From Heliocidaris erythrogramma (lineage: Eukaryota > Echinodermata > Echinoidea > Camarodonta > Echinometridae), in NCBI GenBank assembly GCA_025617745.1, contig CM046853.1:18923698-18987697 (forward strand): DNA of 64,000 nt, read 5' to 3'. The notes under the pieces are model-generated. The model was not told the origin of the DNA, searched no databases, and worked only from the letters and a program-made list of their open reading frames with translations. Position numbers and translations under genes: made by a program. Below are positions 28,831-52,100 of this stretch, piece after piece. Positions within the stretch are counted from its first letter, which is position 1. Each line of letters begins with the position of its first letter.

Positions 28831-29112
28831 ATTGTGACTCTGTAATGGACTGAAGAGATCAGCGAAACACATAAGTACTATTCCGTCAAGGTCACGAACT
28901 TTTCTTCTCGGGTCGATTGATATGGGGAAAACTACGTTTTATCACATGATTACCTTTTGACATGTTTGACCAATCTAACAGCAAGATTCTTAGTATGTGG
29001 AATATAATACCAGATAAGCCACAGAGCTCGTAGAGCTGGGCTTGATGTACTTCAAATTCAATGTCATATTAAAACACTGCGGATATGTGTATGACTATTT
29101 CTATGTCATGAC

Positions 29113-29714
29113 TAGCCAGGATTAGCTTCGCGAGTGTAAAAAAAAAAAAAAAAATTGGCTATACGCCTTTTACATCACGAAGCCAGGCGTCCATCCCCAG
29201 CAATCAAATTGCGCACGGGTTAGCAGGACATGAAAATGCCCTGAAATCACACTTTTCTGATAACTCCCGCGACCGACAGGCCATTCCCCGACAGCGCGCG
29301 ATACAGCCATAATTGAAACTATACGTCGCCGACAGCGCGCGCCGTCGCACGCAGCCGCCATTTTATCTGCATGACCATGATGACAAGAGGAGGCATGGAT
29401 ACACAAACACTGGTGAGTTCTCTGAAATTTCTTATGATCTTTTTTTGCATTTTTTGGTAAAAATACGTTCAATCAAAAAGAGATTCTAATTCCAAACGTT
29501 TCCCTAGGACTGGAGGAAACGCTGTGGCCTGTGCTGTGGGGAATGGCCTGTCGGTCGCGGGAATATCAGAAAAGTGTGATTTCAGGGCATTTTCATGTCC
29601 TGCTAACCCGTGTGCAATTTGACTGCTGGGGATGAACGCCTGGCTTCGTGATGTACTAAAAGGCGTATAGCCAATTTTTTTTTTTTTTTACACTCACGAA
29701 GCCAATCCTGGCTA
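29113..29714. mobile_element. Foldback transposon FB, copy 1
   Basis: Begins TAGCCAGGATTAGCTTCG and ends with the complement CGAAGCCAATCCTGGCTA. An exact 8-bp target duplication GTCATGAC lies at 29105-29112 and 29715-29722. The arms of about 170 bp are near perfect. The loop carries GCCGCCATTTTATCTGCATG, then ATGGATACACAAACACTG followed by GTGAGT. No transposase. The 8-bp duplication suggests a hAT-type mobiliser. Confidence 0.9.
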
Positions 29715-29746
29715 GTCATGACTATGATGAGTGGCCAGCGCCCGTG

Positions 29747-30476
29747 TAGCCAGGATTAGCTTCGTGAATGTAGAAAAAAAAAATGGCTATACGCCTTCTA
29801 CATCACGAAGCCAGGCGTTATTACCCAGCAATCAGATTCCGCACGGGGTAGTACGCAATTTCCATAATATTTGATATATAATGAATTTGTGAAATCATTA
29901 TTTATAAATAATGGAAACTGCAAAATTCATTATTTATATATGATGAATATTGTAAAATCATTATTTAAAAAAAATGGAAATTGCAAAATTCATTATTTAT
30001 AAAACATTGTATCCTTTATGTCAGTTTATCGTATAATAATCGTAGAAAAGAGCTAAATAGTGAATTATATGTAAATAATTGAGCTAAATAATAAATTTAC
30101 AAACGGCGCCTAATAGTTTTCATGATTTCGATTACGGCGATCGTGCCGCCATTTTGATCTGCATGACCTCGGAGGCATGGATACGCAAACGCTGGTGAGT
30201 TTTCTGAAATTTTTATCATCATTTTATTGATTTTTTACCAAAAATAGAGTCGATCAAAACAAAATCGTCATTGCAATCGTTTCCCTAGGAGGAAACGCTG
30301 TGGGGAAGGGCCTGTGGGGCGCGGAAATTATCAGAAAAGTGTGATTTCAGGGCATTTTTCATGTCGTACTACCCCGTGCGGAATCTGATTGCTGGGTAAT
30401 AACGCCTGGCTTCGTGATGTAGAAGGCGTATAGCCATTTTTTTTTTTTTCTACATTCACGAAGCTAATCCTGGCTA
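29747..30476. mobile_element. Foldback transposon FB, copy 2
   Basis: Same ends as copy 1 with an exact 8-bp duplication CGCCCGTG at 29739-29746 and 30477-30484. It lies 24 bp from the copy 1 duplication. The inner part again has GCCGCCATTTTGATCTGCAT and GCATGGATACGCAAACGCTG followed by GTGAGT. Confidence 0.92.
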
Positions 30477-30796
30477 CGCCCGTGTGGCTCCCATGAGCCA
30501 CCTACTGACCTAGCCCTGCCGCTGATTGATCCCACTCACGCATATGCGACTATTGCGAGGTTATTTATTTAACCTAAACTGGTCACTGGAGTTATATTTA
30601 TATATCTACAAGGTTATAGAAATTTGGTGTCTCAAGACTTACACATTGTCTTGTACAGAAACTGCACTTGCTCTGGTTCTTCGTTTGATCCATTTGTCTC
30701 AGCATCTTCCATCTTTCTCTCTAACTACATGTAAGCAAAGAGTTTAAATACGAAGCTTCAGTGCCGAAACAAAGAGTTTAAATACGAAGAGTGCTC

Positions 30797-32068
30797 AGTG
30801 CCGAAATAAAGCACGCGTATATATTGTGGTACATGTCGATCGGCCCAGAGGGAAAGGTTATAGTCTTAATCAAGATGTTTTTATTTTTTTCCTTCTTTTT
30901 CTGGACAGCGCTTAAATTGCCGTTTGGTAAAGCCCTAACTAAAGGGCATAATCTTGATATTGTCCCTTGAAATACAAACTTATGTCCCAAAACAGATAGG
31001 AATCAACTCTAACTGCACCAGGGAGGAGACTCAGAGGGAGAGAGTTGGGAGGGGGGGGGGGGGGGGCTCGGACTAGATGTTTGTTTTTTTGTTAAAGTTA
31101 TTTGCTATGAAATTTCTATTAATATTTATGTGATGATAGGGGGGGGGGTCCAAACATGTTCCCTGATATTAAGCTCTATATGAGCAAACACTGCGATATT
31201 TGACGGGAATGTCGAGAGAAGTTATTTAAAAATAATAATGTGCTATCTTTATTTTTCTATTAAATCAGAATATTTCATTTGATATGATTTATGGAAGTTA
31301 TAGGGATTATAGACCTGCAATGTAATTTTATTAGCCTTATTCTTTTTAAATTCAAGACAGAAAAAGGCTTTAATTAAATGAGATTGTGTGCGAGCAATTC
31401 CTTATATAAATGTAAAGATTACATTAAGAGTGGCGTATCCAAGATTATCCAGGAATGTACATGCCCCTATGTGCCAGCCAAAACAAAATATAACATAATA
31501 TGAAAGGAAATGTGTACCCCCCCCCCCCCCCGCACAGAAAGAATATAACCAACCAATATAACCAACTTATGGTAAGTTATTTGTAATATTCCGCTGTAGA
31601 AAATATGAGACGACGGGCGAAGAAAACAGTAAAGGGGCTTGCTCCGAAGCCATCACCAACGCAATAGGGCCTTTACCGATTGTACGAAAAGGGGGATGGC
31701 CTCCGTGTTTTGAATTGAATTAACAAGTAACCAACAATATAGCAGCTGATGATATATATGATGATATATTTATTTATTACCAGTCCTATTTTGTCTTTGT
31801 AGGAATATCCCATTACTTTTGCCCCATCTCTCTTTGTCTCCCCCCCCCCCTCATTTTTCTCATACTCTCTTTTCTCTCTTACAATGCAGATCTGTAAAAC
31901 ATGACTCCAATAGAATTGAGGAAAAAATAATGATCTCTCATTTTTTTAATTTGTGTTTTTATTTATAGGAAATCAACAAAAATCACAACAATTACAAGTG
32001 ATTTACATGATTAAAAACAAAATCACTGAACAAAAACAAAATAAAGCAACTGGAACAAAATATTAAAA
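30797..32068 (+). repeat. 1.3-kb direct repeat G, copy 1
   Basis: Starts at GTGCCGAAATAAAGCACGCG and ends near AAAGCAACTGGAACAAAAT. Nearly the whole length matches 34201-35612 in the same orientation, including C-rich and G-rich runs and TAGGGCCTTTACCGATTGT. A short related piece is at about 24525-24570. LTR-like in layout, but no primer-binding site or gag/pol is visible between the copies. Confidence 0.85.
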
Positions 32069-32214
32069 AAACTGGAGTAATAATATCTGATACCCTACAC
32101 CCCTCCTTTGACAGCCCTGCATCAATTTTGTGCCCCCACCCTACTACCTCCCGCATTCGCCCTTGTCATAGAATGTCAGTGTCAGACTCATCTCCATAAC
32201 AGGGTTCAGAAGCC

Positions 32215-32246
<32 letters not shown>

Positions 32247-32764
32247 ACATTGTCGGTCTCTCGGTACCAAGGACAACCAAACAACGAACAGCAAGCAAAA
32301 AAACCTGAATTAGCCAAGTTTTGGCAAACTGACATATCATCGGCAAAGCCAACGGCAACGCCACCACCTTTAACGGGATCGCAGAGGGTAGACCAAGCCT
32401 AGATAGTGCTAGACACCTATCATGTCCATGCACCTATTCCGCTCGGCTATTCCATGCTGCTTGCATGAACATCAGCCATTAGGCTAGGCGTAATGCGGTG
32501 ATAGAAAATTGATTATACGAATTTATGAATTTAACACATTGAATTTTGCCTCTGGTACATTAGAAATATAGTAGGGAACTGGAATTTAGTTAGATTTTCT
32601 TCTAACCGGCTAGGCTGGGTTTGCTTTCGGGCGGACGGACGTCTGCTACATGGTCGTCTGCTAGTGCACGATCTAATTGGATGTCGTCACTCACGTGATC
32701 GGTACACGCCCATTTACATTAGGTCATCGATAACAAATTTGAAGGCACGTGTAGTATGGCAAAT
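32069..32764. other. Spacer between direct repeat G and the satellite
   Basis: Unique-looking sequence with a C-run followed by (CA)n at about 32214-32245. No gene recognised. Confidence 0.5.
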
Positions 32765-33960
32765 TATTTTTTTTGGTCGAAAGCATGCATATTCCCGGGG
32801 ATTTGTGCGGGGTTTATTGGACTCACCGAGCCTCAATTATACCCTTCCATAGCTTTAAATTTCATATAAATCACATTTTTCCTAATTTCAAATAAATACT
32901 AGGGGAATTAAAATCATTTCAAAACCCCTGTTTTTATGTGTTAACCAATGGGAGCTGGAAGCCAAAAGCATGCATATTCCCGGGGATTTATGGGGGGTTT
33001 ATTGGACTCATCGATCCTCAATTATACCCTTTCAGGGCTTTAAATTTCATGTAAATCACATTTTTCATAATTTCAAATAAATACTAGGGGAATTAAAATC
33101 ATTTCAAAACCCCCGTTTTCATGTGTTAGCCTATGGGAGCTGGAAGGCCAAAAGCATGCATATTCCCGGGATTTATGGGGGGTTTACTGGACTCACCAAG
33201 CCTTCATTATACCTTATTAGAGCTTCAAATTTCATGCAAATCACATTTTTTACATTTTCAAAGAAAAATTATGGGAATTATAATCACCCTAAAATTCCTT
33301 GTTTTTGCGTGTTAACCTATGGCAGGCGAGACGTTTTTGGTCAAAAGCATGCATATTCCCGGGGATTTATGGGCGGTTTACTGAACTCATCAAGCCTTAA
33401 TTATACCTTTTCAGAGCTTTAAATTTTATGTAAATCACGTTTTTTATATTTTCAAATAAAAATTATGGGAATTATAATCATCCTAAAATTCCTTGTTTTC
33501 GCGTGTAAACCTATGGCAGGAGAGACTTTTGGGGGGTAAAAAGCATGCATATTCCCGGGGATTTATGCGGGGTCTATTCAACTAGTTGAGTCTTAATCAT
33601 ACATTTTCAGAGCTTTAAATTTTATTCAAGGCACATTTTTCAAAATTTTGATTTAATTCTGCGGGAATTATAATCATTCAAAAATTCCCCTTTTTGCGTG
33701 CTAACCTATGGGAGATGGAAGGCCAAAAGCATGCATATTCCCGGGGATTTATGCGGGGTCCCTTGCACCTTTTGAGCCTTCATTAAGCCTATACAGATTC
33801 TCAAATTACATGTAAGCCACATTTGCACTAAATTCAAGGTAATACTAGAGGAACTATAATCATTTTTAAAATCCATGTTTTCACGTGTTAACCCTATGGC
33901 AGATGACTCTGTCAAAAAGCAGGCATGATCCAAGGGATTCATATCGGCATTTATTGACAA
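32765..33960 (+). repeat. ~190-bp satellite block, six to seven units
   Basis: Units carry AAGCATGCATATTCCCGGGG at about 32780, 32965, 33152, 33345, 33542 and 33725, with a decayed one near 33917. Each also has a GTGTTAACCTATGG-like phrase. Divergence rises to the right. Confidence 0.9.
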
Positions 33961-34200
33961 AAAAGGTTCAAGTAATGTTTTTTCAACTATCCATCCTTTT
34001 TCTCGTGCAAAAATCAGACTTGAAAAAGATAGAGTAAGATATGAAATATCAAGAAAAAGTGAGACATATTTTCACGTGTTATACCTATGGAGAACGTATT
34101 TTTCCGAGTCTGTTTTTAACACAGCAAAGTATGCCTCCAAAATGTACTACGGAAGTAGGTCAGAGTAATCTGTCTTGATACTATTTAAAGTCTTTGGCTT

Positions 34201-35612
34201 CAGTGCCGAAATAAAGCACGCGCATATATTGTGGTACGTACATGTCCATATCGGCCCAGAGGGAAAGGTTATAGTCTTAATCAAGATGTTTGTATTTTTT
34301 TATTTTCTTTATTTTTCTTCTTTTTCTGGACAGCGCTTTTACCTTTTGGTAAAGCCGTAACTAAAGGGCATAATCTTGATATTGTCCCTTCAAATACAAA
34401 CTTATGTCCCCAAACAGATAGGAATCAACTCTAAGTGCACCAGGGAGGAGAGGGTGAGAGTTGGGAGGGGGGCTTCGGACTAGATGTTTGTATTTTTGTT
34501 AAAGTTATTTGCTATGAAATTTCTATTAATATTTATGTGATGATGGGGGGGGGGGGGGGGGGTCCAAACATGTTCCCTGTTATTAAGCTCTATATGAGCA
34601 AACACTGCGATATCGATTCAAGAAATTGTCATTCAAAAATAATAATGTGCTATCTTTATTTTTCTATTAAATCAGAATATATCATTTGATATGATTTATG
34701 GAAATTATAGGGATTATAGACCTGCAATATAATTTTATTAGCCTTATTCTTTTAAAATTCAAGACAGAAAAGGCTTTAATAAAATGAGATTGCATGCGAG
34801 CAATTCCTTATATAAATATAAAGATTACATTAAGAGTGGCGTATCCAAGATTATCCAGGAATGTACATGCCCCTATGTGCCAGCCAAAACAAAATCTGAC
34901 ATAATATGAAAGGAAATGTGTACCCCCCCCCCCCCCCCCCCGCACAGAAAGAATCTGAAAACTGTGATAATTTTTTTCCTTGCTTGTCCTAAAATTCAAA
35001 ATAGAATGCATCTGATGATTTTTTTTTGTTCGTCAGGCGTGAGCCTCCCCCTCTCCCTGCATTCCTGGATACGCCTCCAATATAACCAACTTACGGTAAG
35101 TTATTTGTAATATTCTGCTGTAGAAATGTAAGACGACAGGCGAAGAAAACAGTATAGGGCTTGCTCCGAAGCCATCACCAACGCAATAGGGCCTTTACCG
35201 ATTGTTCGAAAAGGGGGATGGCCTCCGTGTTTTGAATTGAATTAACTAGTAAACAATATAGCAGCTGATGATATAATTTATTTATTACCAGTCCTATTCT
35301 GTCTTTGTAGGAATATCCCATTTACTTTTGCCCCAGCTCTCTTTGTCTCTCTCTCCTCCCCCCTCTCATTTTTCTCATACTCATACTTTTCTCTCTTACC
35401 ACCGATCTGTACAAAATGACTCCAATAGAATTGAGGAAAAAATAATGATCTCTTATTTGTTTTATTTGTGTTTTTATTAGGAAATCAACAGAAATCACAA
35501 CAATTACAAGTGATTTACATGATTAAAAACAAAATAACTGAGCAAAACAAACAAACAAACAAACAAACCCCAAAACAAACAGTAAAAATAAAGCAATTGG
35601 AACAAAATTTAT
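34201..35612 (+). repeat. 1.3-kb direct repeat G, copy 2
   Basis: Second copy of 30797-32068. It has an extra stretch with AAACTGTGATAATTTTTTTC then GTGAGCCTCCCCCTCTC at about 34957-35075 that copy 1 lacks. Confidence 0.85.
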
Positions 35613-35727
35613 AAAAAAAAATAAATAAATAAAAATGATCTCTTATTGCTCCCCCAATCTTTCAATTTAATGAGATCGACAACCAACACTATGCAATCAT
35701 ATTCTTCACATCCATGACGGAATAGCA

Positions 35728-35952
35728 GGGGCGGATCAAGAGGGGGCAAATCGGTCGCGGCCCCTAAGCTTCTTGAAACCCAGGGGGGGGGGGGGGCGCA
35801 AGGGGCGTGCGCCACCCGTTTTGTCTGACAAAGTATGCACCCGGACCGCAGATGGCCGTTTGGCTTCGTCAAACGGAGGGTTCCTCAGTGTGCGCCCCCC
35901 CCCCCCATTCTGAAATGCGCCCCCCTTTCTGAAAATCCTATATCCACCCCTG
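35728..35952. mobile_element. MITE with CAGGGGCGGAT ends
   Basis: Ends CAGGGGCGGATCAAG and ATATCCACCCCTG, 225 bp, with long G and C runs inside. Confidence 0.65.
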
Positions 35953-36850
35953 TAGTATGCTGCCATCATACACATACTAGTTTGGAGCCCGTCCCGTAAT
36001 AGTCACCCCATTTTACCCATAAGATTTGACCATGTAAATTTACTAACATCATCTAAGTGATTGACAAAAAAGTTGTCAGCGTGACCGTAGCCGTTGGGTT
36101 TTGTCCTGCAACTTCATAATAAGGCCTAGTCCATATACGTCTTTGACCATTCATTTTCGGAATTTGTTTTCATTTTGCTATCGATTTTGTCAAAGACTGA
36201 AAGAGTTCAAAGAGTTAATCAAAATCGTCAACCGCTCGTTGTAAGGTCTTGTCTATGTGACGAATTTGAATGACAATTTCTTGAATCGACTTCCCAAAGA
36301 TGGATTTGATGATAAAATCTTGCAGCGGATTGCCAGGACGAATTCGATTGAAATCTGACGAAAATGAATGGAGATATATGTTGAAGTTGATTGACCATTG
36401 AAACTGTTGAATGACATTGTAATTATTAAACTATCTTTGACATCTGACATTTGGATGATTGTTGATTCCTATCAGCCTATATAGGACGAAATTGAATAGC
36501 ATTTTGATCTTTCAAAAGTGTTAGATTGGACAGGAAATCCTGACTATGACCCTCTAGATAATCCAGCCTCTTTAACCGGAGTGCCAAGAGAGTATTTTAT
36601 AAAACATCGACTTCTTGAACTATAATCAGAAATAACAAGATGCTCTGATATAACACTTGGGGTGTTTTGGAAATAACATTTGGGAGATAGAAAAGTGCGT
36701 TTTCCGTCGCTCGCTTCGCTCATTCACAAAACTTTGAAATGAGATAGTTTCAGGCAGAGCGCGTTGATAGAAAGTGGTGACACGCGCATAATAAGCCTAC
36801 GCGTACGCGGTCTTTGTTTGAAACATCATGGAGCTCCCAATAGTATACCA

Positions 36851-37012
36851 TTAATACATGGTTGGGAGTGCGTTGGTGCGATCTGGCAACACAAAGGATT
36901 TTATCGTGGTGTACTCTACGCACGAGGCGCAAGCCGAGTGTGATTGACACCACGATAAAAACCTGCGTGTTGCCAGATCGCACTAACGCACGAACTCACA
37001 ACCATGTATTAA
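36851..37012. mobile_element. TTAA-ended foldback, 162 bp
   Basis: Arms TTAATACATGGTTG and CAACCATGTATTAA, then GATCTGGCAACAC paired with GTGTTGCCAGATC and ATCGTGGTGT paired with ACACCACGAT. Nested in element H. Confidence 0.85.
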
Positions 37013-37470
37013 TAGTTTTATAAAACGGGTCGGCAATATGATTATGAAGTCTATAAAAATGGTTACGAACCCAATAGAAACGCCAAGAGTCGCACAGTCA
37101 TGGATGCTGCCATTTGCTTTCCTGGATGACATCATAGAAGCGTAGCCAACAAAAGTCATGCGCGTTTCAGTGCGCGCATGTAATCCCTGCGCTAAAATGA
37201 CAATTAAACTACGCGATTTCATTGCGTTTTAAGTTTGCACGCACCAGAGGTACGCGTACGCGCAGCTCATCCGTGCTTTAGAGCCTTTTTGCACGGTCAC
37301 GTGGCGGTTATTTGACCAATCAGGATGGCTACATTCTTGAACCCGTTTTATAATTCCCTTTAACGGCTTTCACGTACATTCTCTGTGCGAGTGAACTTTT
37401 TGAAGCTCCATTAATGACTGACCAATCAAAAGCGACCTCCAGTGTCAGGACTCTCTGTATGGATATAGGT

Positions 37471-38040
37471 CTGGTTTCAGGCAGCGAGGGCCATGAATAG
37501 TATGGCCATGAATAGTATGTCCATGAATATTCAATGTTATGACAATTTTCGGGCACGTCACTGCCTTATCGCCATGGCGCCGAGAAATTAGGGTTACCTT
37601 ACTTTTTATACTGAAATGAGCAACAACGAATTAAAGTCCTTCGCTCGCTCGCAAATCTTAGAAATACTAGTTTCAGGCAGCGAGGTCCATGAATATTTCC
37701 ATAAGGATGTTATTGCAATATCCAGGCAGGTCGCCGCCCTATCGCCATAGCATCCGAAAACTTGTTAGGTCCACTTTCTATATTGAAATGAGCAACAGCA
37801 AAGTAAAGTGCATTTTTCCTCGCTCGCTTCGCTCGCTCGCACACCTTATAAACGAGATAGTTTCATGCAGCGTGGCCATGAATATTCAATGTTACGACAA
37901 TTTCGGCACGTCACTGCCCTATCGCCATGGCGCGCAGATATTAGGGTTACTTTCTATAAAAGAACAACAGCAAAGTGCCCCCCCCCCCCGTTCGCTTTAC
38001 TTCCTAAAAACTTTATACATATGAATGATTCTTGCATATG
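37471..38040 (+). repeat. Three ~190-bp tandem units in element H
   Basis: Units start near 37476, 37668 and 37858 with AGTTTCAGGCAGCGAGG or a close variant. They share TATCGCCATGGCG and TGAAATGAGCAACA. Confidence 0.8.
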
Positions 38041-39354
38041 ATAACAAGATGACCGGAGATATAGCTTTACATTTCACCTATTGGTGACTATAATGAACTA
38101 AAATTTTGCCATTTAAAAGTACATTTTTATTTTTCTCTGGATTGCTTTGTTCGCTCGCAGTATTTGGAATTCTACACAGTGGTATAGCATAATTATGTTC
38201 GGGCTTCACATTTGACCCACCCCCTGTCACATAATTCTGACTACGCTCGTGCCCAAACCCTTTGAGGGGCACGCCCCCTGACCCCCACCCGCCACCCCTA
38301 CTCGGTCGCTTCGCTCCCTCAGAAAGGTCCACTTTCTCCAGTGTTGAACCCCCCCCCCCCCCCCAGCAAAAATCCTAGTTACGGGCCTGCCCATGCACCA
38401 AACTTTGTCAGTATATTAGTATGAGTATGAGTCAATATATTAGTATATTAGTATGACTGGACATTACAAAATACAAAAAATTGACAAAAAAATCCGTCGG
38501 GATGGGGATTCAGACTGCCCCTAAAAATCGGGGTAATTTTTTCCACTGGAAGCTAGCCCAGGGACAAAATCTTGCCAGAAGGAAGAGCCATGGATGTAGC
38601 CTACATTCCAAAAATATAAACTGATAAAATTGCCCATTGGGAAGGGAGTGTCTAACCCTATGAAATGCAAACCAAAAGTGCCCTTTGACAGCATCCCCCC
38701 AATGCTCAGTATGTAAAGGAAAAACATTGTTTTACTTTCTGACTATGCCTAACTCAAAAGTGCTTTTTTCAATTCAATTCAAATTTACATAATGATATTT
38801 TGAGTATAATAATTTTCTTGAGGTGCAATTTGGTGTTAATTGGTTTTTTTGATTAATAAGTTATTATATTGTGAAAACGTATTACTTTCTAAAAATTAGG
38901 CATAAAATATTGTTAGGATTATACACACCCATTGTCCATCTCACTGTTTGACAAGGCATAACAGAAGAGCTTTTCAGGTATCTGTGGTATGTGACTGTAG
39001 TCATGTGTTAATTGCACAGATACTCAAGCTCCTCTATTATGCCTTGTCAGATGGTCTTTTGGGGGCTCTGGGGGCTAAACCCGACGGCTACGGTCAGGCT
39101 GACAATGACTTAGATAGTCTAAGTAACTTTAAATGGTCAAATCTTATGGATAAAATGGGGTGACTATGTCGGGACAGGCTCCTGGCCTAACAATACAAAG
39201 TATATCATCATCTTCAATACATATCATGATTATAATGCATGTTCCATGCAATCCATTTATTTTAATGTTCCATTTTATTATATTTGATTATTATATAAAA
39301 TTACATTTTCACTGAAAGTGTTCACGTTCTTGCTTGCTGACTTCCCTCCCAAAC

Positions 39355-40645
39355 ATGGGGTAACCTCGATAGTCATAAGGACCGCTATTCATAAGGACCA
39401 CTCATTCATAAGGACCGCTATCCATAACGCGTGACTATAGCGTTTTTGTATGAATAGCGGTCCTTCTAAATAGCGAGCAAACCATATACAAATTACCTCG
39501 CTATTCATAAGGACCGCTATTCATAACGCATGTTCAGTTAACAGCGGTTTTCTATAGCGGACCCCTATATTATTCAGCCTTATGTCATAAAGTTGTTGAA
39601 GTATACCTGATTCTATATGTACATGCATCTTGAGTTGAATCGAGTTGATTTATTGACTCTGTTCGACCCCCTATTCAATTTTTTATAATTCCATAGCATA
39701 CTCATCCTTTTTTCACCTCAAGTTTTGGTTGTTTGTCAGAAATTTTTAGATTGAGAAATTGTATATAGGCTACCAGCTACAAGTGGGCACAGGGAGGGGG
39801 GGGGGGGGGGGGAGGGGTTTCCCATCCCGCGACAACTTTTGACCAAAAGAAAGGTTATCAGGCAGTGGCGGATTTTTTTTTTTTTTTTTTTTTTTTTGGG
39901 GGGGGGGGGCAATTCCAGCCCGTGCCCTTTTGAAAGAAAAGTTTACATTTTGCCCCCCCCCCCCCGCCTTTAGAACTGATAACTAGAATTAAATAATAAC
40001 GTGCACATATCCGAATGTTTCGATCATTCGATCAAGGCGCGACAACAAATATAATATTATGCAGGTTACATAAAAATAGTAGATAATCTACATCTAATTA
40101 TTCAATTCAATTCAATTCTCATTTATTTCATTTTCAATTAAAAAGTACGTAAGTGATAAACGATATTAGAAAATGAAATGGGGAACTATAATATATAGGC
40201 CTACATAAATAATTATTAAAACTAAGATTTCAGACAAACAGTTATGTTTTCAGTTGTCTTGAATTGTTCTATTGAATCTGATTGCCTCAATAATAGCGGC
40301 CATAATGACGGCTATTCATAAGGACCGCTATTCATAACAGAGTGCCTATACCTGAAGGTCCACTATTCATAAAACGGAAAGGGGGGTCACTATTCATAGA
40401 GTCATAAGGACCGCTCTTCATAATGTGAGATGAGAGTCGCTATTCCTAATTCACATTGAGGGTATACCCCTGATTACTCATAAGGACCACTCATAATACG
40501 GATTGAGGGTCGCTATTCAGTAATAGGAGAAGAGGGTTGCTATTCATAATACGAAAACAGTGAGGGTCGCTATTCATATTATTATGGATTGAGGATCGCT
40601 AATCGTAATAGGAGAAGAGGGTTGCTATTCATATACCCTCAATAA
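39355..40645. repeat. CATAAGGACCGCTATTCATA repeat clusters
   Basis: Two clusters (39355-39560 and 40265-40645) of the unit CATAAGGACCGCTATTCATA in both orientations. Between them lie G, T and C homopolymers (39790-39970) and ordinary AT-rich sequence. It ends about 450 bp before the NDUFA4 start codon. Confidence 0.7.
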
Positions 40646-40964
40646 TTGCTTTCTTCAATTTCTTGCTTTCTTTTGTTTTATTTTGTTATTAGCATTTTAG
40701 TCGATATGCTCCCAGTGAAGTAAGTCTACACGGCGCGCGCGGCAGAGTGCAGTGAAAAATGTTGCTAGCCTCAATTCAGTTCTTAAAAAAAATAATCACA
40801 AAATAATCGATCTTACGTACATAAAACATGAGTGGAAGAATTTAAAATCATTCTTTTGTACATTGTATTTCCATAATAATGATTCGTTTCAAAAATCAAA
40901 ACTGTTTTTATTATCAAACAGGGAAATGTAGACATTAAACAAACTTCCATATACCGTAATGATA

Positions 40965-41101
40965 TATCGACGACTGGTATCATAATTTAGCAAAACCGTC
41001 GCCATTTTCATTGCGGTCGACGGCTGTAACTGTAGTGTAAGCGCTCACTCCTGCTGAAATTTCTCCTTTTCCACTGGAGTTAGTCCATTTAATCTACCAA
41101 A
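40965..41101 (+). promoter_or_regulatory. NDUFA4: Presumed NDUFA4 promoter / 5' leader
   Basis: The 137 bp before the NDUFA4 ATG are richer in CpG than the surroundings and contain GTCGCCATTTTC at 40999-41009. This resembles the YY1 site often found just downstream of start sites of mitochondrial genes. A pyrimidine-rich leader (TTTCTCCTTTTCC) follows. No TATA box is evident. The transcription start is not known. Confidence 0.4.
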
Positions 41102-41146
41102 ATGATGCAAGGTTTGACATGGACGAGCTTAAAGCACCATAAAGCG
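41102..41146 (+). CDS. NDUFA4: NDUFA4 exon 1 with start codon
   Basis: The context is CTACCAAAATGATG, then MMQGLTWTSLKHHKA, then donor GCG|GTAATT in phase 0. The length (15 codons) and basic end fit the human start MLRQIIGQAKKHPS, and exon 2 begins exactly at LIPLF. Two ATGs are adjacent; the first is taken as the start. Confidence 0.82.
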
Positions 41147-43094
41147 GTAATTTTATAAGATGAAATTGAATCATTAAGTGTTATAATTGGGCGAAAACAT
41201 CTGCCCTTCGGCTTTGGCTTTGCCCTTGGCGTGTGTGTGTGGGTGTGTAATTGGGTTTTTACAGACGTGTATCAATCAGATAGGCCCCTATGATTATTTA
41301 CGTGAGTTCTCAATCTCAGATATATGGGTGTAGATTTATAGCTGTACGACTACGAGCTCCTTGGCTTATCAATCTGGGGGTCGTTTCAACAAATCAACTC
41401 CATTACTGTTGTCGGCGATCTACAGAAATGTCATGGACCTGAAAAACTGTTTCACGAAGACATGATAAACGACAACTCAATGATATCGATACTCATCGGC
41501 GAAAAAACATAGGCCTAGTCTGTATCACAGTCCATTGGAATTATCGTCAGTTACCTAAACAGATTTTGAGGCTCAGTTTTCCCCAAACACTTCCAAAATG
41601 TAAAAAATGGCAGCGAAGATGAATGCCTGTGATACAAACATCCCGTTTACATGAAAAGATGTGTTTCTTATGGCATCTTAGAATTTATAAAATTGAGAAA
41701 ACTCGAAGAGGCTTTTGCGATGTACGAATCTAGATTTGTAGGTAAGAGGATACCGTAATTGACTAATTACGGAAAGAAGACCCAAATCGTGTTCATTTTA
41801 GAGAAAATGATTAAATTAAGATATCTTATGGCCCAATTTTAAATATTTATTCATTAAAAGATACATAGGGTGCGCGCCCCGGTATTCGGTCACTTAAAAA
41901 GAAATCGCCGCTGATATAAATACCTATCTCTTTAAATTGACAATCTACCATCAAAAGAACCGCAAAATTGTCCTTTAAATAATTATCAAAATAATTTAAA
42001 ACATGGAAACTTACCCCAAAAAATATCGCCGACAGAAGAAGGAGAAGTTTTCCGCCCAGTATTCGGTCGGCGCCGCCCACAATTCGGTCACGCGATGGTG
42101 CGCTGCATCTCGGGAGAGTTATATAACCATTTTTGTCATATTTCTGCGTTTTTAGGCAATTTCTGTGGCTTCTATATATTCATACTTAAATGTATGAGAA
42201 TTTTTATCCATTAAAATCCACAAATCGAAGATCTAGGGTCAGAAATAATGAACAAAATGTATTTCTAAAAAGAGCAAAGCGCGTCAGCAAAGCGCAAAGC
42301 GCGTCGGCAAAGCGCAAAGCGACAAGTTGCACACAAAGCGCGTTGGCGCAAGGCACTCAATGTTGCCTGACCGAATACTGGAAGAGCGCCATCTCACTGG
42401 CAGGGGTGAGGTATATATTCTCTTGCTCATCGCTGAGATCGCCATTTGCAAATTCGCTGCGATAGAGGGAAGACCCGGAAGCTCCTCTTCACACATACTA
42501 AATTCATTGCACCTGCACACATAGTTATTTCACCATAGGCGTCTACATATGGTTATGCGTGTTAACTCACGCGCTAACGGAACCCGGAAGTGCGGAAACT
42601 TGGGTAACACTGACCAGTTTCGAGGGTATTTGGAGATCTTTTCCAGGGCGTCTGACCTGAATTTCTTTCAACATTAGAGGTACCTTGTTCATGTGTCTGT
42701 TATGTACAGGTTTCGAGCCTCAAAAATTATTCATGAGTTCTTCACAGCTGTTCAAAGAGCTGCGTGACCGAATTCTGGAAAGTGACCGAATACCGGGGCG
42801 CGCACCCTAGGCCTATAATATAATTCATATCGAGGCATTGCGTGAAAACGGGGAAAAAGGCGAAAATACATACATGATAAATTGTCGTCGTTCACATGGG
42901 TCTGTATATACAGACTGTTCCGTTTTCAATGCTGATTCTATGGTAGACGGATGTGGGTATTTTTAATATTAATCTCATTTACTTGTTGGGGGTCAAGAAG
43001 CCATAAGCAGCCAATCCGCAGGTCCCCAAAAAGCGCGCTATTTTATTGTATCCCCCGGCAGAATGCCGGAGGATACTTTGGATTCAGCAGCGTT

Positions 43095-43146
<52 letters not shown>

Positions 43147-46100
43147 GTCACATTCTTGTGTGCGCTCTAGCGGTCACATTTCTCGACGAATTTTTTTCAG
43201 ACTTCCTGTGGACGTGTATCTTGGTAAAATCTGGACCCCTATAGTTTCTGGTGATGCTGCCCCCAGTGTTCCGTCTTTTATAGGGTAAAAGGCCATATTT
43301 TTGGGATAGTTTGTGTGCGCTCTAGCGGTCACATTTCTCAACGGATTTTGTTCAAATTTTGTATGAAGGTGTCTCTTGGTAAAATCTGGAACCCTATAGA
43401 TTTTGGTCATGCTGCCCCCAGTGTTCCGTCTTTTATAGGGTCAAAGGTCATATTTTGATAGATGTCTTGTGTGTACTCTTGTGTGCGCTCTGGCGGTCAC
43501 ATTTCTCAACGGATTTCGTTCAAATTTTGCATGAAGGTGTCTCTTGGTGTAATTTAAAAACCTATAGTGTTTGGTGATGCTGCCACCAGTGTTCCGTCTT
43601 TTATAGGGTCAAAGGTCATACTTCAGGGCATGGCGTGAGTGCACTCTGCAGGCCACATTTCTCAACGGATTTTGTTCAAATTTTGGATGGAGATGTATCT
43701 TGGTATAATCGACACATGTTTAATTTTTGGTGATGCTGCCCTCGTTGTTCCGTCCTTTATAGGGTCAAAGGTCATTTTTCCATTTCTTGCACTCTTACTT
43801 CTGCATTTCTCAACGGATTTCGTTCAAATTTTGCATGAAGGTGTCCCTTGGTGTAATCTAAAAATCTGTACTTTTTGGTGATGCTGCCACCAGTGTCCCG
43901 TCTTTTATAGGGTCAAAGGTCATACTTCAAGGGATGGCGTGAGTTCACTCTGCAGGCCACATTTCTTGATGGATTTCTTTCAAATTTTGTATGGAGATGT
44001 ATCTTGGTATAATCTACACATCTTTACTGTTTGGTGATGCTGCCCTCATTGTTCCGTCCTTTATAGGGTCAAAGGTCATTTTTCCATTTCTTGCACTCTT
44101 ACTTCTGCATTTCTTGACGGATTTCGTTCAAATTTCGCATGAAGGTGTCTCTTGGTGTAATCTAAAAACCTATAGTTTTTGGTGATGCTGCCACCAGTGT
44201 TCCGTCTTTTATAGGGTCAAAGGTCATACTTCAGGGCATGGCGTGAGTGCACTCTGCACGCCACATTTCTTGATGGATTTCTTTCAAATTTTGTATGGAG
44301 ATGTATCTTGGTATAATCTACACATCTTTACTGTTTGGTGATGCTGCCCTCATTGTTCCGTCCTTTATAGGGTCAAAGCTCATTTGTCCCTTTTGTGCAC
44401 TCTTACTTCTGCATTTCTTGACGGATTTCATTCAAATTTTGTATGGAGATGTATCTTGGTATAATCTACACATATTTAATTTTTGGTGATGCTGCCCTCA
44501 TTGTTCCATCCTTTATAGGGTCAAAGGTCATTTTTCCATTTCTTGCACTCTTCTGCATTTCTTGACGGATTTCGTTCAAATTTCGCATGAAGGTGTCTCT
44601 TGGGGTAATCTAAAAACCTATAGTTTTTGGTGATGCTGCCACCAGTGTTCCGTCTTTTATAGGGTCAAAGGTCATACTTCAGGGCATGGCGTGAGTGCAC
44701 TCTGCACGCCACATTTCTTGATGGATTTCTTTCAAATTTTGTATGGAGATGTATCTTGGTATAATCTACACATCTTTACTGTTTGGTGATGCTGCCCTCA
44801 TTGTTCCGTCCTTTATAGGGTCAAAGCTCATTTGTCCCTTTTGTGCACTCTTACTTCTGCATTTCTTGACGGATTTCATTCAAATTTTGTATGGAGATGT
44901 ATCTTGGTATAATCTACACATATTTAATTTTTGGTGATGCTGCCCTCATTGTTCCATCCTTTATAGGGTCAAAGGTCATTTTTCCATTTCTTGCACTCTT
45001 CTGCATTTCTTGACGGATTTCGTTCAAATTTTGCATGATGGTGTCTCTTGGTGTAATCTAAAAACCTATAGTATTTGGTGATGCTGCCACCAGTGTTCCG
45101 TCTTTTATAGGGTCAAAGGTCATACTTCAGGGCATGGCGTGAGTGCACTCTGCAGGCCACATTTCTTGATGGATTTCTTTCAAATTTTGTATGGAGATGT
45201 ATCTTGGTATAATCTACACATCTTTACTGTTTGGTGATGCTGCCCTCATTGTTCCGTCCTTTATAAGGTCTCTCAACACATTTCTTTCAAATTTTATATG
45301 AAGATGTGTCTTAGTGAAACCTACACATCTAATTTCTACACCATCCTTTTGTTTGAGGGAGGGGATGGGGGAGGGTCTTTGTCCCTCCTTCAAATCGCTG
45401 CCAGTGCCGGGGGATACATTTAGCATTGCGCGGCCCCAGCAATGCACATTTCTAGTTTCCAGTTCTGCCTGACTATGAATACATAATGAGCAAGAACAGC
45501 CAGGAACATCTTATTTGCAAACTATTGAATGGACTACTTATCATTCACCAATTGCCATGAGTTATGCATCAAATAAAAGAAGAGGGATCAGAGATTTGTG
45601 ACATGCTTTTGTTGTTTTCAAAATAAAAGACGAAATTGGTAAAAAAATGGTGTTCCTTTTATGACAAAAAATGGAAATGAAATGAAATATAAATCTGGCC
45701 AAAACTACCATAGTTTTATTGTGAGCCAGGGCAAATTTGACATGAGCGTAAAGGGCATTTTCTGTACTTTCCAAAGATCGAAATAACATTAATGTGCACT
45801 TCATGACAGGGTCAGGATCCAGCAATATGTAACCAATGTACACACTTTGTCTTTAAAAAAGTCAATTCCAGCTTTCCTATTGGTTACCACCACGCAAGAT
45901 GTTTTCTCACAGCCTGGCAACAGCTATGCGCATGTTTGCGCAAGGATGAAGCAACAGGTTGCGCATTGTTTCATTCAACGCGCACTTGGTTACAGATGGC
46001 TTGCTTGCCAATCACAGGGCTAAGATTCTATGGTCTTGACCTTGGTCTTGACAACGGATGATCTGCGGCTGAATATTGCTGGATCCTGACTCTGTCATAA

Positions 46101-49100
46101 ATCTATGGATGTTTTGAATGTAACGATGAAAAAGATGAGATTCCAGCGCTTCCATACATATGTGTCTTGATGGCGGCTCATATACTTTTTATATGTCTTT
46201 TAACAACTTGAAATCTTGTGAAAAAAAGGCTTTTGTATGACTATTTCATCAGTTATTTTAAACAACTTATTTCTAAAATTCTGACTAAAACAAAATATCC
46301 CTGTGTTGGTAAACTATTCATTTATTTTTGCAGAAAGTCTAATGAGCATAGCATTTATATATATTTAGGAACATAACTTTAAAGATGACCATGCGATACA
46401 GCCGACTGGGTGCAGGGAGAGAGTCCATTTCGTGCACTGGAAATAAAATGCGCAATTTTTGCTCATTTGCATACGACCTGCGGTCTGACTGTAAGAACAT
46501 ATTGTTCGTCTGTACAATATTATAATACGGACATTAGTAATACTATCTGGTAAAGGAATGATAAAGGATAGTGCTTGGAGATCAGGAAATAAATGTTCTC
46601 TTAATTTACATTTGTTATTTTTTCGCAGCCCATAGACTAACTAAAAGCTGACTTGTGATGGCGTTCTAAAAAGATATGACAGGTCTGGAGTATCGACAAG
46701 TCACTTGTCAGCGAAGCTGTCGCTGGTCTTGGCAAAGACGGCTTTGTGAAACACTTAGCGGACAAGTTGAGCGACAGTGTCGAGATGTCTCTGATCTTGT
46801 CGTTATGACGGTTTGATGAAACGACCCCATGGTACTTGCCTACGGAGCTGTACATGGGATCCATATACCTTGTGTGTTGGAAGGCATCACCACAAAAAAA
46901 CTAGATCTAAATATCACCATTTCTCACATAATTTGACCCATGCAACCCACCCTCGGAATTTGCTATAGGGGTTACCTTCCAGGATCAACTAAGATTGTAA
47001 AAATTGAATGACTAAAAAAGAGAAAAAAAAGACAAAAATCGGCAGATTTTTTTACCTTGCATTTGTAACTTATATATATATGGGACTACACAATACTTAC
47101 AATGCATTGTAGTCCCATCCATACAAATTACAAGTACATGTCGAGTTAAAAAAACCCCTGATTTTTGTCTTTTTTTCTCTTTAGAGTCATTCAATTTTTA
47201 CAATCTTAGTTGATCCTGGAAGGTAACCCCTATAGCAAATTCCGAGGGTGGGTTGCATGGGTCAAATTATGTGAGAAATGATGATATTTAGATCCAATTT
47301 TTTGGGGTGATGCCTTCCAACACACAAGGTATATGCACTCATAGCTACATTCCTATACTTCGTGTGTAGAATCTAGGCAGAAATCGGGCTGTAAATCCCC
47401 ATGAAAATCCCTGAAAATATCAGAAAATGTCCCATTTACATATTGGTGCCAAAGTGAAAAATATACCCCCTAAACGCGTTCGGCCAGATTAGTCAAAAGC
47501 ACCCCTTTTTGTTGGAAATCAGCGTTTTGGACCCCTTACGCGTTCCACCTGAAAAAGGACCCCTTTTACGCGTTTTCTTGGACGTGCATGTGTACACCCA
47601 TATATCTGAGTAGCCCCCCCGGGGCTATACGCCTTTTACATCACGAAGCTAGGTGTTTTATTCCGCCATTCTAATTGATTCTAACTGCGCACGGTTAGCA
47701 GGTCATGAAAAATGCCCTGGAAGTGGAATATCACTTTCCTGAAAACTCCCGCAACCGACAGGTTCTTCACCACCTGACCACAGCATCTCCTCCTAAAAGT
47801 CCTAGGGAAACTTTTGGAATGTATGTTTTCGAATTTTTAAAAGTATTTATTTCAAAAAAATTTAAAAAATAGGATAAGAAATTTGCGAGAACTCACCAGT
47901 GTTTGTGTATCCATGCCTCCTCTTGTCATGCAGATTTAAAATGGCGGCTGCGTGCGAAGGCGATACAACCATAATCAAAACTATACGATGCGGTGCAGTG
48001 GTGGAGATTTCCATTAATGCTAAACGTTGGCTTAGTGCCATCTACGTTGACTTTTTATTTAGCATTAATAACATGATTAATGGAAATTTCGTCAGACATT
48101 TCCACCACCATGACCACCATGACCACTGTACCATGTATAGTTTCGATTATGGTTGTATCGCCGACAGCGTACGCGCCGTCGCAGCAGCCGCCATTTATTA
48201 CAAATCTGCATGACAAGAGTCAAGAGGAGGCATGGATACACAAACCCTAGTGAGTTCTGGCAAATTTCTTATCCTATAATATATTTTTAATTTTTTTGAA
48301 ATAAATACTAAAAAAAAAAAACCAAAAGCAAACATTCCAAAAGTTTCCCTAGGACGAGGAGCTGCTGTGGTGAAGAACCTGTCGGTTGCGGGAGTTATCA
48401 GGAAAGTGATATTCCAGGGTATTTTTCATGACCTGCTAACCGTGCGCAGTTAGAATGGCGGAATAAAACACCTAGCTTCGTGATGTAAAAGGCGTATAGC
48501 CCATTTTTTTTTTTTTTACACTCTGGAAGCTAGTCCTGGCTAGTCGTGTGGAGTGTCGCTCTCTTGTCTTGACTGGAGTCTCCATTGACATTGCATTGCC
48601 ATTGTGATAACTTCTGGACCTTGGATGTTGATGGGGAGCCCTATGTCTGTGCACCTAAGATTTTGAGGCTGTATTGTGGTTGAGGAAACCAATCGCTTGT
48701 TAGCATGCAAAAGTAAAATTAAAGTGCAGAGTGTTGACTTTGTCTTTGGACGGGGAATAAGGAAACAATGCGTGTAAACATGGTAATATTGTTAAACGCA
48801 ATGAACTTTTAAGTTTTATGAAGCGCTTCTGTGCGGAGTGAATGGTGGTTTCCTCAACCACAATAATGCTGATTTTGACCTGAAAATAAACAAGGATTTC
48901 TTTACTAATTAGTATTCCAATGGCAGTAGTCTAATGCCTAATTTTATATTAATTGTTATTCTTGATATTCTAAACTAAAGAGCTAAGTTTGCAAAAAATC
49001 TCATCAAAATTAGACTAGAGCAAGAACAATACCATTTAAGGAAGAAAAAAAACCGGCTGCCGTGTCATTTCAAGTTTTCAGCATTGAAAAAACAATGGTG

Positions 49101-52100
49101 CCCATGTCTGTGTACTCAATTCATTTTACACGCAATTCATTTTGAGGCTTGTAAATAAAATGTTCTGAAATAAGACTGTTTTTCAATATTTTGACTCGTT
49201 TTTTGCATGAATACACATCGCTATGATAAAGATGAAAGTTTTGTTTGATTAGAATTGCTCAGTTACGCGGTGCGCACCATGAAAAGAGGCTTGTATTACT
49301 CATAGCTACATAATAATAATAATCCAATTAAAGTCCACTCCAAATTTTATTAACCGAAATGGAAATTCTTTTTGCCCAATTGATCGTGGGCCCGGCAGCT
49401 ACTGTGCAGCACCAGATCGACGTTGCTCTATCCCTTCAATTGTTGAACGCCAAACAAGGTAGCAGCAACTCCCATCTTTTAACGTCTTTCGGTATGACGC
49501 GGCCGAGGTTCGAACCCACGACCTCCCGATTGTGAGGCGGACGCTCTACTGACTGAGCCAACACATGATTGTGTGTAGAATCTAGGCAGTCATACACCAA
49601 CTTTTTCAAACACCACTGCACAAAAGTCACCTACATTCACTCAAAATCGGCATTTAATTTACAAAAACCGGCCCCAACATATTCAATAAATACAATAAAT
49701 TCAACTCACGATGTTGGAAAAGATATTTTCCCCCTTTTTCGCCAAAACGAGACATAATTTGGACAATCGATTGGCAGATTCGTGATTAGAAGGCCAAACT
49801 ACATGGAAAGAGCACCCATTTTCTCTCTAATTTAGTCAACTTTTAAAGATTTGGTCCCTATCGCGTACACGGAAAGTCCCAAATTTCTTTGTGCGCGATC
49901 GTAGAGATCGATGTGCGCTTGCGATCCTGAGTTGGTTTTTTTTCTTCGTGGACAAAAGTTTTATTGGCCGATTTTAGTCTAAGACATCGGCGGTATGTAA
50001 ACAACACGCGATCACGAAACAAATCGGCGGGGATTTCTTCGGTTTTGGACATGATTTTGACTTTGGATTTTGCTGGAAATATCAAAAGTGCTTCCTAACG
50101 GCCATTTGAGGTAGGAGTGAGATTTTTAAGGCTGAATTTGAAAGCAAGTATTTAAAATATTTTATCTTATTTTCCCCCATACCTTTAGTACATGCGACAG
50201 AAAATACCAAATATTTTTGCATGCATATATCGTAGTGGTCAATATGACTGCTATTCGTGGTGTGGCTTGAATCCGGAATCTCGTTATATCAGGGTAAAAA
50301 AACAAAACAACATGAACACCTGGGACCAGCAAAATTACCTTGTTATATCAGGAATCTTCTTATATCAGAACTCTTTATAGCGAGTTTCCACTGTACTTAC
50401 TTGCGGTATGTAACCCTGTAAGTTAGAGCTAATATCGGATCGGATGATCGATTTGGGAGGTTAGCTCCCGATATTGGTATCGGTAGGGAAATCAAACTAA
50501 AAAAATGCACTTAAATACATGTACCTAAAATCATACCTACTATAGATTCTCTTCTCATATGAAGTTTTTATAGTCCATATTTGTTGATGTTTAATGATCT
50601 AACCATGCCTCTGAAAATTTGAAATGGGTGTAAAAGTAGAGAGAGAATATATGGCCGCCATTTTGGATTATAAATAACATCATTTTTTCAGGCTCGTCCA
50701 ACATCAGTAATGCTAGAAAAAATTAAACGGCTTTCTAAAATTTTTATTTTCAAAGTTTGCTTTTAGAGTATTTTTTTTTCATGTCAAGGAATAATTTATT
50801 TTACTTCCAACACTTGGATGGGGGGTTGCATTTCCGGACACTTAACAAAAATTAGCCTGTCAAGTTTGCTGTCAGATTTTTACGAAAAACGTGCATCAAG
50901 TAACAATAAAACGAATATTTGCAGTTCACATGATTTTCAACCTATCCTGTGAAAGATTTGTGACAATTTGCATGAAAAGTTGTTCGATTTACTGTTTAAA
51001 AATGACCTGTCCAGAATTACATCTGGGTATACATTCTTAATTTTTAAAGCTAATATTCAGGCACCAAAGATAAACATTGCACACTACACCTGTGAAGAAT
51101 ACATGTTGTATGCATACACTCATATGCCTGCACACTGTCTATCCTCGTGTAAGAATCTTGTAATGATTACAAAGTAAATAGATTTATCAGCTTTAGAATG
51201 TGGTGTTATATGAGTACAAGAAAATATTGAATGACTTTAAAAAATATATTATAATGGCATACTTTGAAAAATAAAATTTTAGAAAGCCATTTGATTTTTT
51301 CCAACATTGTTGATGTTGGGAGAGCCAAGAAAATGATGTCATCTTAAAATGATATAATCCAAAATGGCGGCTCGCATATTCTCTCTCCACTTATAGACCA
51401 ATTTTTGACTTTCAGAGGCAAGATAAGAGCAAATGAACAAATAGAATCTATAACAACTTCAAATAGAGAATAACCCAAGGTATGGACATTTTTAGAAGTA
51501 TTTACGGATTAAAACTTCTGCATTTGAAGCCTTTTTTTTGGTGGCAACTAATGTTTTGAAATTTGATGTGAAATTTGCTTGCTCGTTATAATGGGAATGA
51601 TTACCAATCTTTTTCTTTGTTTTAGAGGCATGAGATTTAGCTCGTTATAGCCGATCTCGCTCTAAAGGTTCATGCTGCCATAGAATTACATGCAAGTGAA
51701 ATTGGGACCGTGATAATATCCTTGTTATAACTGTTACCTCGTTATAGCTGACCACGTTATGTTGAGTTTTTCCCTGTAATAAAATGAAAAATAAAAGAAT
51801 TTTTAAGAAAGGAAAAATACAACGAATTACCTGTTTCTACAAAATGAATATAAACTTTGACCATGAATTATTCCTAGAGCTGAGGACTGGGATGGACTCA
51901 TGTGTATAATAATATGTAGATGGTCGCTGAGATGAGTGTCTTTTTCAGCAATATCTTGCTTTAACATGAAAGACTGGTCTGAACATGGGATGGATCCCCT
52001 TTTCAGATAACTGGACCTGTCCTAGCTTTTTGTACTCCAAACATTGTGAATTTTGCCAGTGAAAGCTTCAAATTTTCTGCTTGTATATTAGCACTGCGAC

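What the first reader, a model, noticed from the sequence alone, without database searches (positions are those of the whole stretch)
29113..48542. Foldback transposons carrying a first-exon-like cassette
Three FB elements (29113-29714, 29747-30476, 47611-48542) all contain GCCGCCATTTT (YY1-like) and ATCTGCATGAC, then GAGGCATGGATAC(A/G)CAAAC followed by a G/A-TGAGT donor-like site. In copy 3 it is in both arms, facing outward both ways. A start-site motif, an ATG (reading MDTQTL) and a splice donor at fixed spacing look like a captured or evolved promoter plus first exon. It could start chimeric transcripts into nearby genes, so the family may act as a mobile promoter trap.
Basis: partly seen in the sequence, partly recalled or inferred. 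Interest (0 to 1): 0.72.

Follow-up and report, generated by a model that had tools for sequence, protein, structure and literature searches.

The report
Foldback transposons with YY1-like promoter motif
Three copies of a small non-autonomous foldback transposon in an animal genome share a conserved stretch that looks like a promoter and first exon, but it is most probably a piece of the transposon's own control region and not a captured host exon that hijacks neighbouring genes.

Summary
The sequence observation is largely right; the promoter-trap interpretation is mostly not supported. Three foldback elements are present; copies 1 and 2 are intact with perfect 8-bp target duplications, copy 3 lacks its left tip. 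GGAGGCATGGATAC(A/G)CAAAC occurs exactly 4 times (0.01 expected): once in copies 1 and 2, in both arms of copy 3. ATG-to-donor spacing is constant (18 nt); start-motif-to-ATG spacing is not (32-45 nt). A conserved, weak acceptor-like TTTCCCTAG ends 94-103 nt after the donor. ATG-to-donor is more conserved than the putative intron (p=0.0003) but not significantly more than the terminal repeat (p=0.13). Its three variable sites are all synonymous, a weak signal (p 0.011-0.057). Copy 1 keeps a remnant of the opposite inner arm, so its ancestor was palindromic like copy 3. Read in the orientation published for TISU/YY1 start-site elements, the motif faces inward, against the proposed exon. Two unrelated long-repeat families in the window also have YY1-like cores in their arms; lancelet ProtoRAG is a published parallel. 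Best reading (0.48): arms made from the transposon's own control region. The own-genome search did not complete (16 of 16 requests), so master element, host source gene and transcripts are untested.

The parts
29105..29112 (.). 8-bp target duplication GTCATGAC, left of copy 1
   Evidence: identical to 29715-29722
29113..29289 (+). copy 1 left terminal inverted repeat (starts TAGCCAGGATTAGC)
   Evidence: 97% complementary to the right arm over a gap-free 92-nt stretch; 93% over 194 aligned columns including flanks and indels; alignment
29298..29325 (+). remnant of the inner left arm of copy 1, in the orientation of copy 3's left arm
   Evidence: GCGATACAGCCATAATTGAAACTATACG; alignment scores 41 and 44 against the two copy 3 arms, maxima of 1,000 shuffles 24 and 21; implies a palindromic ancestor
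29354..29364 (+). GCCGCCATTTT (reverse strand AAAATGGCGGC, YY1/TISU-like), copy 1
29395..29412 (+). ATG..CTG, MDTQTL, copy 1; GTGAGT follows at 29413
29413..29507 (+). 95-nt AT-rich intron-like segment GTGAGT...TTTCCCTAG, copy 1
29538..29714 (-). copy 1 right terminal inverted repeat
29715..29722 (.). 8-bp target duplication GTCATGAC, right of copy 1
29739..29746 (.). 8-bp target duplication CGCCCGTG, left of copy 2
   Evidence: identical to 30477-30484
29747..30476 (+). copy 2, whole element; its outer ~110-bp terminal repeats are identical apart from poly-A length
30145..30288 (+). copy 2 cassette: GCCGCCATTTT (30145), ATG (30177), GTGAGT (30195), acceptor-like TTTCCCTAG (ends 30288)
30477..30484 (.). 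8-bp target duplication CGCCCGTG, right of copy 2
47622..48542 (.). copy 3, long inverted arms, left terminus truncated, no matching target duplication
47802..47948 (-). copy 3 left-arm cassette, facing left (outward)
48187..48352 (+). copy 3 right-arm cassette, facing right (outward)

Best explanation
A small non-autonomous foldback (long-inverted-repeat) DNA transposon family, moved by a transposase made elsewhere that makes 8-bp target duplications. Each arm of the ancestor carried, from the tip inward, terminal repeat, AT-rich segment, conserved block and YY1-like motif, so the element looks like an inverted dimer of one transposon end. The conserved stretch is most likely the 5' control region of the parent transposon's own gene: a core promoter with a YY1/TISU-type AAAATGGCGGC reading inward, away from the tip. 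The outward MDTQTL-plus-donor reading is then a by-product of the opposite strand, not a captured first exon. Shown: the arms, the target duplications in 2 of 3 copies, the palindromic ancestor of copy 1, the shared blocks. Inferred: the inverted-dimer origin, the inward promoter, YY1 binding, the trans-acting transposase.
For: Perfect 8-bp TSDs and near-identical arms in copies 1 and 2. Copy 1 retains an inner left-arm remnant matching copy 3, so the cassette-bearing palindrome is ancestral for these two; an inverted dimer of a transposon end explains why the block sits in both arms. ATGGCGGC in sense faces inward in 4 of 4 cassettes; PMC2518114 passages say that the start-site YY1 element (TISU) occurs downstream of the start of transcription in one orientation only, with an ATG that is the start codon in 64% of its genes. 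PMC7481187 passages: lancelet ProtoRAG has a YY1 site (GCCATCTTG) in its TIRs, and its full TIRs activate reporter transcription. Two unrelated long-repeat families in this window also have YY1-like cores in well-kept arm blocks. Young insertions (copy 2 arms identical bar poly-A) of lineages whose aligned arms differ by 25-36% fit long-lived transposon lineages that keep what their own expression and mobility need.
Against: Inward reading frames from ATGGCGGC are not conserved: copy 2 stops after 6 codons and copy 3 right arm after 15; copy 1 and copy 3 left arm share only MAAAC before they diverge. The two stop-to-stop frames inside the elements that I scanned (100 and 111 aa) match no Pfam family. 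The inward acceptor-like site TCATGCAG|AT is mediocre (top 2-20% of AGs), no better than the outward one. The outward reading has the strong donor and the all-synonymous pattern. The match to the recalled TISU consensus is imperfect (1-2 mismatches in 3 cassettes, more in the fourth). PMC2518114 also says that most functional YY1 sites occur at variable positions and orientations. In ProtoRAG the lancelet YY1 represses transcription and transposition, although mutating its sites also lowers activity. In the two other families the motif faces the other way relative to the tip. No autonomous relative was found, because the own genome could not be searched.
Confidence: 0.48

Rival explanations
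1. Captured host promoter and first exon (Pack-type capture): a host gene's promoter, first exon MDTQTL, intron 1 and the start of exon 2 were picked up by the transposon once, then inverted and spread.
For: Ordered YY1-like motif, ATG, strong donor, ~95-nt AT-rich intron-like segment and TTTCCCTAG in 4 of 4 arms; variable sites in MDTQTL all synonymous.
Against: After one capture, dead fragments should not keep exon ends while the intron diverges; the four arms share the same passage from exon 2 into the terminal repeat; frames after the acceptor-like site differ between arms. A composite 35-aa peptide matched nothing in the PDB up to E=10, which is weak evidence. The Pack-TYPE paper, seen in passages, speaks of plants (no occurrence of 'animal').
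Confidence: 0.2
2. Non-coding binding block: the conserved stretch is a docking site in the arm for transposase and/or a YY1-like factor, as for ProtoRAG TR5; exon and promoter readings in both directions are accidental.
For: ProtoRAG precedent; YY1-like cores in arms of two other families; conservation not significantly different from the inner terminal repeat (p=0.13).
Against: Does not predict the constant 18-nt ATG-to-donor spacing, the conserved TTTCCCTAG or the synonymous pattern.
Confidence: 0.2
3. Mobile promoter trap: an outward promoter and first exon, kept by selection, that splices into neighbouring genes.
For: Outward cassettes in both arms are ancestral for copies 1 and 3; donor very strong; lowest-variation 31-column window of the arm; the element's own acceptor-like site is weak and could be skipped.
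Against: TISU orientation argues for inward transcription; an acceptor-like site lies inside the element; spacing from motif to ATG varies. Three of the four cassettes point away from the PHF14-like gene; the one that points toward it (copy 3 left arm) would enter the exon at 23160 out of frame and stop after 9 further codons (read by eye).
Confidence: 0.1

Closest known systems
ProtoRAG of lancelet (PMC7481187; abstract and passages seen)
   Same: DNA transposon whose terminal repeats hold a YY1 site and activate transcription
   Different: ProtoRAG encodes RAG1-like and RAG2-like proteins; none seen here; termini not compared; its YY1 acts mainly as a repressor
Galileo, foldback-like P-superfamily elements of Drosophila (PMC4168063; passages seen)
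   Same: long terminal repeats that can be extended, copies without transposase, 7- or 8-bp target duplications
   Different: assigned by its transposase; none is available here; termini not compared
hAT-type non-autonomous elements with 8-bp target duplications
   Same: 8-bp duplications (PMC8903248 passage: all identified hAT elements in the two plant species had 8 nt)
   Different: termini TAGCC do not fit the (C/T)A(A/G)NG start that I recall for hAT; no transposase seen
TU foldback elements of sea urchin (recalled, nothing read)
   Same: modular inverted-repeat elements with 8-bp duplications (recalled)
   Different: sequence not compared; host of this window unknown; one search with 'TU elements', 'sea urchin' and 'inverted repeat' found no paper
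Pack-TYPE transposons (PMC8903248; passages seen)
   Same: non-autonomous TIR elements carrying gene-like pieces
   Different: described there for plants; no host source gene shown here

Membership tests
Non-autonomous foldback / long-TIR DNA transposon | long inverted terminal arms | tested here: met
   copy 1 ~177 nt, copy 2 ~112 nt, copy 3 ~380 nt arms
Non-autonomous foldback / long-TIR DNA transposon | target-site duplication of constant length | tested here: met
   8 bp, perfect, in 2 of 3 copies; copy 3 is truncated and its flanks do not match
Non-autonomous foldback / long-TIR DNA transposon | no transposase inside | tested here: met
   elements of 602, 730 and 921 nt; the two frames of 100 and 111 aa inside copies 1 and 3 match no Pfam family up to E=0.1; cassette frames are short
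hAT superfamily | 8-bp duplication | tested here: met
hAT superfamily | hAT transposase in the parent element | not testable with these tools
   own-genome search unanswered in 16 of 16 requests
hAT superfamily | terminal consensus (C/T)A(A/G)NG (recalled) | tested here: not met
   termini TAGCC
P superfamily (Galileo-like) | P-type transposase in the parent element | not testable with these tools
   no parent found
Pack-type captured gene | internal piece derived from an identifiable host gene | tested here: inconclusive
   no further copy of the cassette in the window; PDB search with a composite peptide negative; host genome not searched
Outward promoter trap | promoter oriented outward | tested here: inconclusive
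   motif orientation fits inward transcription better; not decisive
Outward promoter trap | splice donor without a competing acceptor in the element | tested here: not met
   TTTCCCTAG, ending 94-103 nt downstream in 4 of 4, though scored weak, top 5-22% of AGs
Outward promoter trap | chimeric transcripts | not testable with these tools
   no RNA data available
TISU/YY1 start-site element | match to SAASATGGCGGC (recalled consensus; not in the passages seen) | tested here: inconclusive
   3 of the 4 cassettes are listed, with 1-2 mismatches; copy 3 right arm is not within 2; 12 matches in the window against 6.75 expected, 3 of 100 shuffles reach 12

The most novel reading that the evidence does not exclude
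The family carries a real outward-facing promoter, coding first exon (MDTQTL) and donor in both arms, kept under protein-level selection in its source lineages, so that each insertion can start chimeric transcripts in both directions: a mobile, two-way promoter and first exon.
Probability: 0.09. Interest if true: 0.7.

Novelty: new member of a known kind. Interest (0 to 1): 0.33.

Why it matters
If the control-region reading holds, the window adds another kind of DNA transposon, besides lancelet ProtoRAG, with a YY1-type site in its terminal arms, and two further families in the same window suggest that this may be a recurrent solution. That can be tested by a genome-wide count of YY1-like sites in terminal repeats.

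Tried and rejected
Considered and set aside: (1) Simple inward gene with internal deletion (left repeat, promoter, exon 1, intron, right repeat), because copy 1 keeps a piece of the opposite inner arm and copy 3 has the block in both arms. (2) A conserved protein running through the acceptor-like site into the terminal repeat: frames differ between arms, and a composite peptide had no PDB match up to E=10. (3) A spliced-leader-like gene (exon, donor, Sm-like T-run): the T-run motif is inconsistent between copies, 3 of 4 by the pattern used, and I saw no common fold, by eye only. (4) The synonymous pattern as proof of coding: a CpG-aware simulation on a single lineage gives only p 0.011-0.057, and three or four changes are too few. 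(5) A four-block conservation score, 3 of 61 variable columns against a mean of 27 and a minimum of 7 for 369 circular shifts: I chose the blocks after seeing the alignment, so it is descriptive only; for the pre-stated ATG-to-donor segment 6 of 369 shifts were as low. (6) Relatives elsewhere, exact matches only: none for the 20-mer or the terminal-repeat 24-mer in viral contigs, none for the 24-mer in genome contigs; an animal family is not expected in these collections. (7) Literature: 10 searches; I saw no title or abstract start that named this family, but five of the listings were cut (20 of 3,429 papers, 8 of 617, 8 of 48, 8 of 12, 8 of 17) and the library is open-access only. Papers looked into: PMC7481187, PMC4168063, PMC2518114 and PMC8903248, each in found passages only.

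Full report
What was checked. The window is animal DNA: a gene on the minus strand reads as PHF14. ORF 12703-13056 matches PHD finger protein 14 in the PDB at E=4.8e-13 and, below the curated cut-off, Pfam zf-HC5HC2H_2. Further PHF14-like exons at 8427-8666, 9768-10136, 22051-22476 and 22916-23160 are assigned only by recall of the protein (ORFs); none had a convincing Pfam match, and the one tried against the PDB, 9768-10136, had none. The species is not known to me. Three elements of one foldback family are present.

Anatomy. Copy 1 (29113-29714) and copy 2 (29747-30476) start TAGCCAGGATTAGC, end with its complement or a near-complement, and are flanked by perfect 8-bp duplications, GTCATGAC and CGCCCGTG; 16 bp separate the two pairs. 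Copy 2's outer ~110-bp arms are identical apart from poly-A length; copy 1's are 97% alike over a gap-free 92-nt stretch and 93% over 194 aligned columns. Both look like young insertions, although the right arms of copies 1 and 2 differ by 25% of aligned columns and arms of different elements by up to 36%. Copy 3 (47622-48542) lacks its left tip and a matching duplication.

Is it more than chance? Yes, as shared descent: 4 exact matches of the 20-mer against 0.01 expected. The pattern GCCGCCATTT..ATG..GTGAGT was seen 4 times and never in 200 mononucleotide shuffles. Spacing is constant only from ATG to donor (18 nt); GCCGCCATTT-to-ATG varies over 32-45 nt and ATCTGCATGAC-to-ATG over 20-30 nt.

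Conservation. On four aligned arms (three elements; two arms are from copy 3), ATG-to-donor has 3 of 25 variable columns, the intron-like body 41 of 77 ungapped, the inner terminal repeat 36 of 131 ungapped (9 and 22 gapped columns were dropped from the last two). Fisher: p=0.0003 against the body, p=0.13 against the repeat. The 31-column window from GGAGGC to GAGTT is the least variable of the arm (3 variable columns, next non-overlapping window 5). All three variable sites are synonymous third positions of MDTQTL; simulated probabilities, for changes piled on one lineage, run from 0.011 to 0.057 with the root, the CpG bias and whether three or four changes are counted.

Splice signals. With a recalled human-like matrix, the donor is in the top 0.2% of 6,595 GTs for three cassettes and the top 1.9% for copy 3 right arm; TTTCCCTAG|G is only in the top 5-22% of 6,895 AGs. 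The acceptor-like site is conserved but weak. If used, it would keep splicing inside the element, which works against a trap; being weak, it might be skipped. Frames after it are not shared.

The ancestor was a palindrome. Between its left terminal repeat and its cassette, copy 1 holds GCGATACAGCCATAATTGAAACTATACG, which matches the inner left arm of copy 3 on the same strand and the inner right arm on the opposite strand (scores 41 and 44; maxima of 1,000 shuffles 24 and 21; wrong-strand controls 10 and 15). Copy 1 thus seems to have lost the left cassette from a two-cassette ancestor. For copy 2 this could not be told, because its middle is a different AT-rich sequence with tandem repeats. 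This makes the two-way arrangement old, and it makes the element look like an inverted dimer of one transposon end.

Direction. GCCGCCATTTT on the other strand is AAAATGGCGGC. PMC2518114 (abstract and passages seen) describes a YY1-binding start-site element up to +30 after the start of transcription, present in one orientation only, with an invariable ATG that is the start codon in 64% of its genes; it also says that most functional YY1 sites occur at variable positions and orientations. In the published orientation the promoter would lie in the conserved block and face inward. Against this, the inward frames are not conserved (copy 2 and copy 3 right arm stop after 6 and 15 codons), the frames of 100 and 111 aa inside copies 1 and 3 match no Pfam family, and the match to the recalled consensus is moderate, 1-2 mismatches in three of four cassettes. 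PMC7481187 (abstract and passages seen) gives a parallel: a YY1 site in the terminal repeats of lancelet ProtoRAG, repeats that activate transcription; there YY1 itself represses, while mutated sites also lower activity.

A wider pattern. GCCGCCATNTT with up to one mismatch occurs 13 times in the window, 2.46 expected, 0 of 100 shuffles as many. Nine of 13 lie in foldback arms: 4 in this family, 2 in an unrelated element (arms within 50512-51504) whose arms share a perfect 19-nt block GCCGCCATTTTGGATTATA, and 3 in a family of TTAA-bounded elements (13421-14962 and 52430-53356). The other four lie at 27268, 40998, 41604 and 58250. In those two families the motif has the opposite orientation relative to the tip, so no common direction is shown. 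The arms of the present family gave no blast match to either of them at E up to 1e-3.

Conclusion. The most economical account is a non-autonomous foldback transposon whose arms retain the parent's own control region. Capture of a host exon and a pure binding site remain open, each at about 0.2; a selected outward promoter trap is least likely. The decisive search, of the own genome, could not be done: 16 of 16 requests were unanswered.

Noticed in passing
50512-51504: A second, older foldback element (arms 74-80% alike) with GCCGCCATTTTGGATTATA perfectly kept in both arms, facing the centre.
   Followed up: partly
13421-14962, 52430-53356, 53984-54805: A third family of long-repeat elements; the first two copies begin and end with TTAAAGGRGAATTAAC-type ends (TTAA target by inspection) and have a YY1-like GGGGYTGCCATTTT in conserved arm blocks, imperfect in the third copy; the first copy contains a 161-bp tandem array.
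   Followed up: partly
8427-23160 minus strand: PHF14-like host gene; the exon that starts at 23160 after CAAACAG begins inside a codon, so by analogy with the recalled protein the first exon should end in ATGG; ATGGGTRAGT is not found in the window.
   Followed up: partly
21007-22009: About 48 copies of a 21-bp minisatellite, 98% matches, next to a PHF14-like exon.
   Followed up: no
43155-45270, 23753-24385: Tandem array of a 156-bp unit with an AGGTCA-type half site, also present in inverse orientation near 24 kb.
   Followed up: no
27033-27180 and 48667-48846: A dispersed repeat (68% alike) that lies beside copy 3 and some 2 kb before copy 1; TCCGCCATTTT lies 88 bp after the first.
   Followed up: no
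18658-18960: ORF that resembles, from recall, the C-terminal part of LINE reverse transcriptases; no Pfam match up to E=0.1.
   Followed up: no
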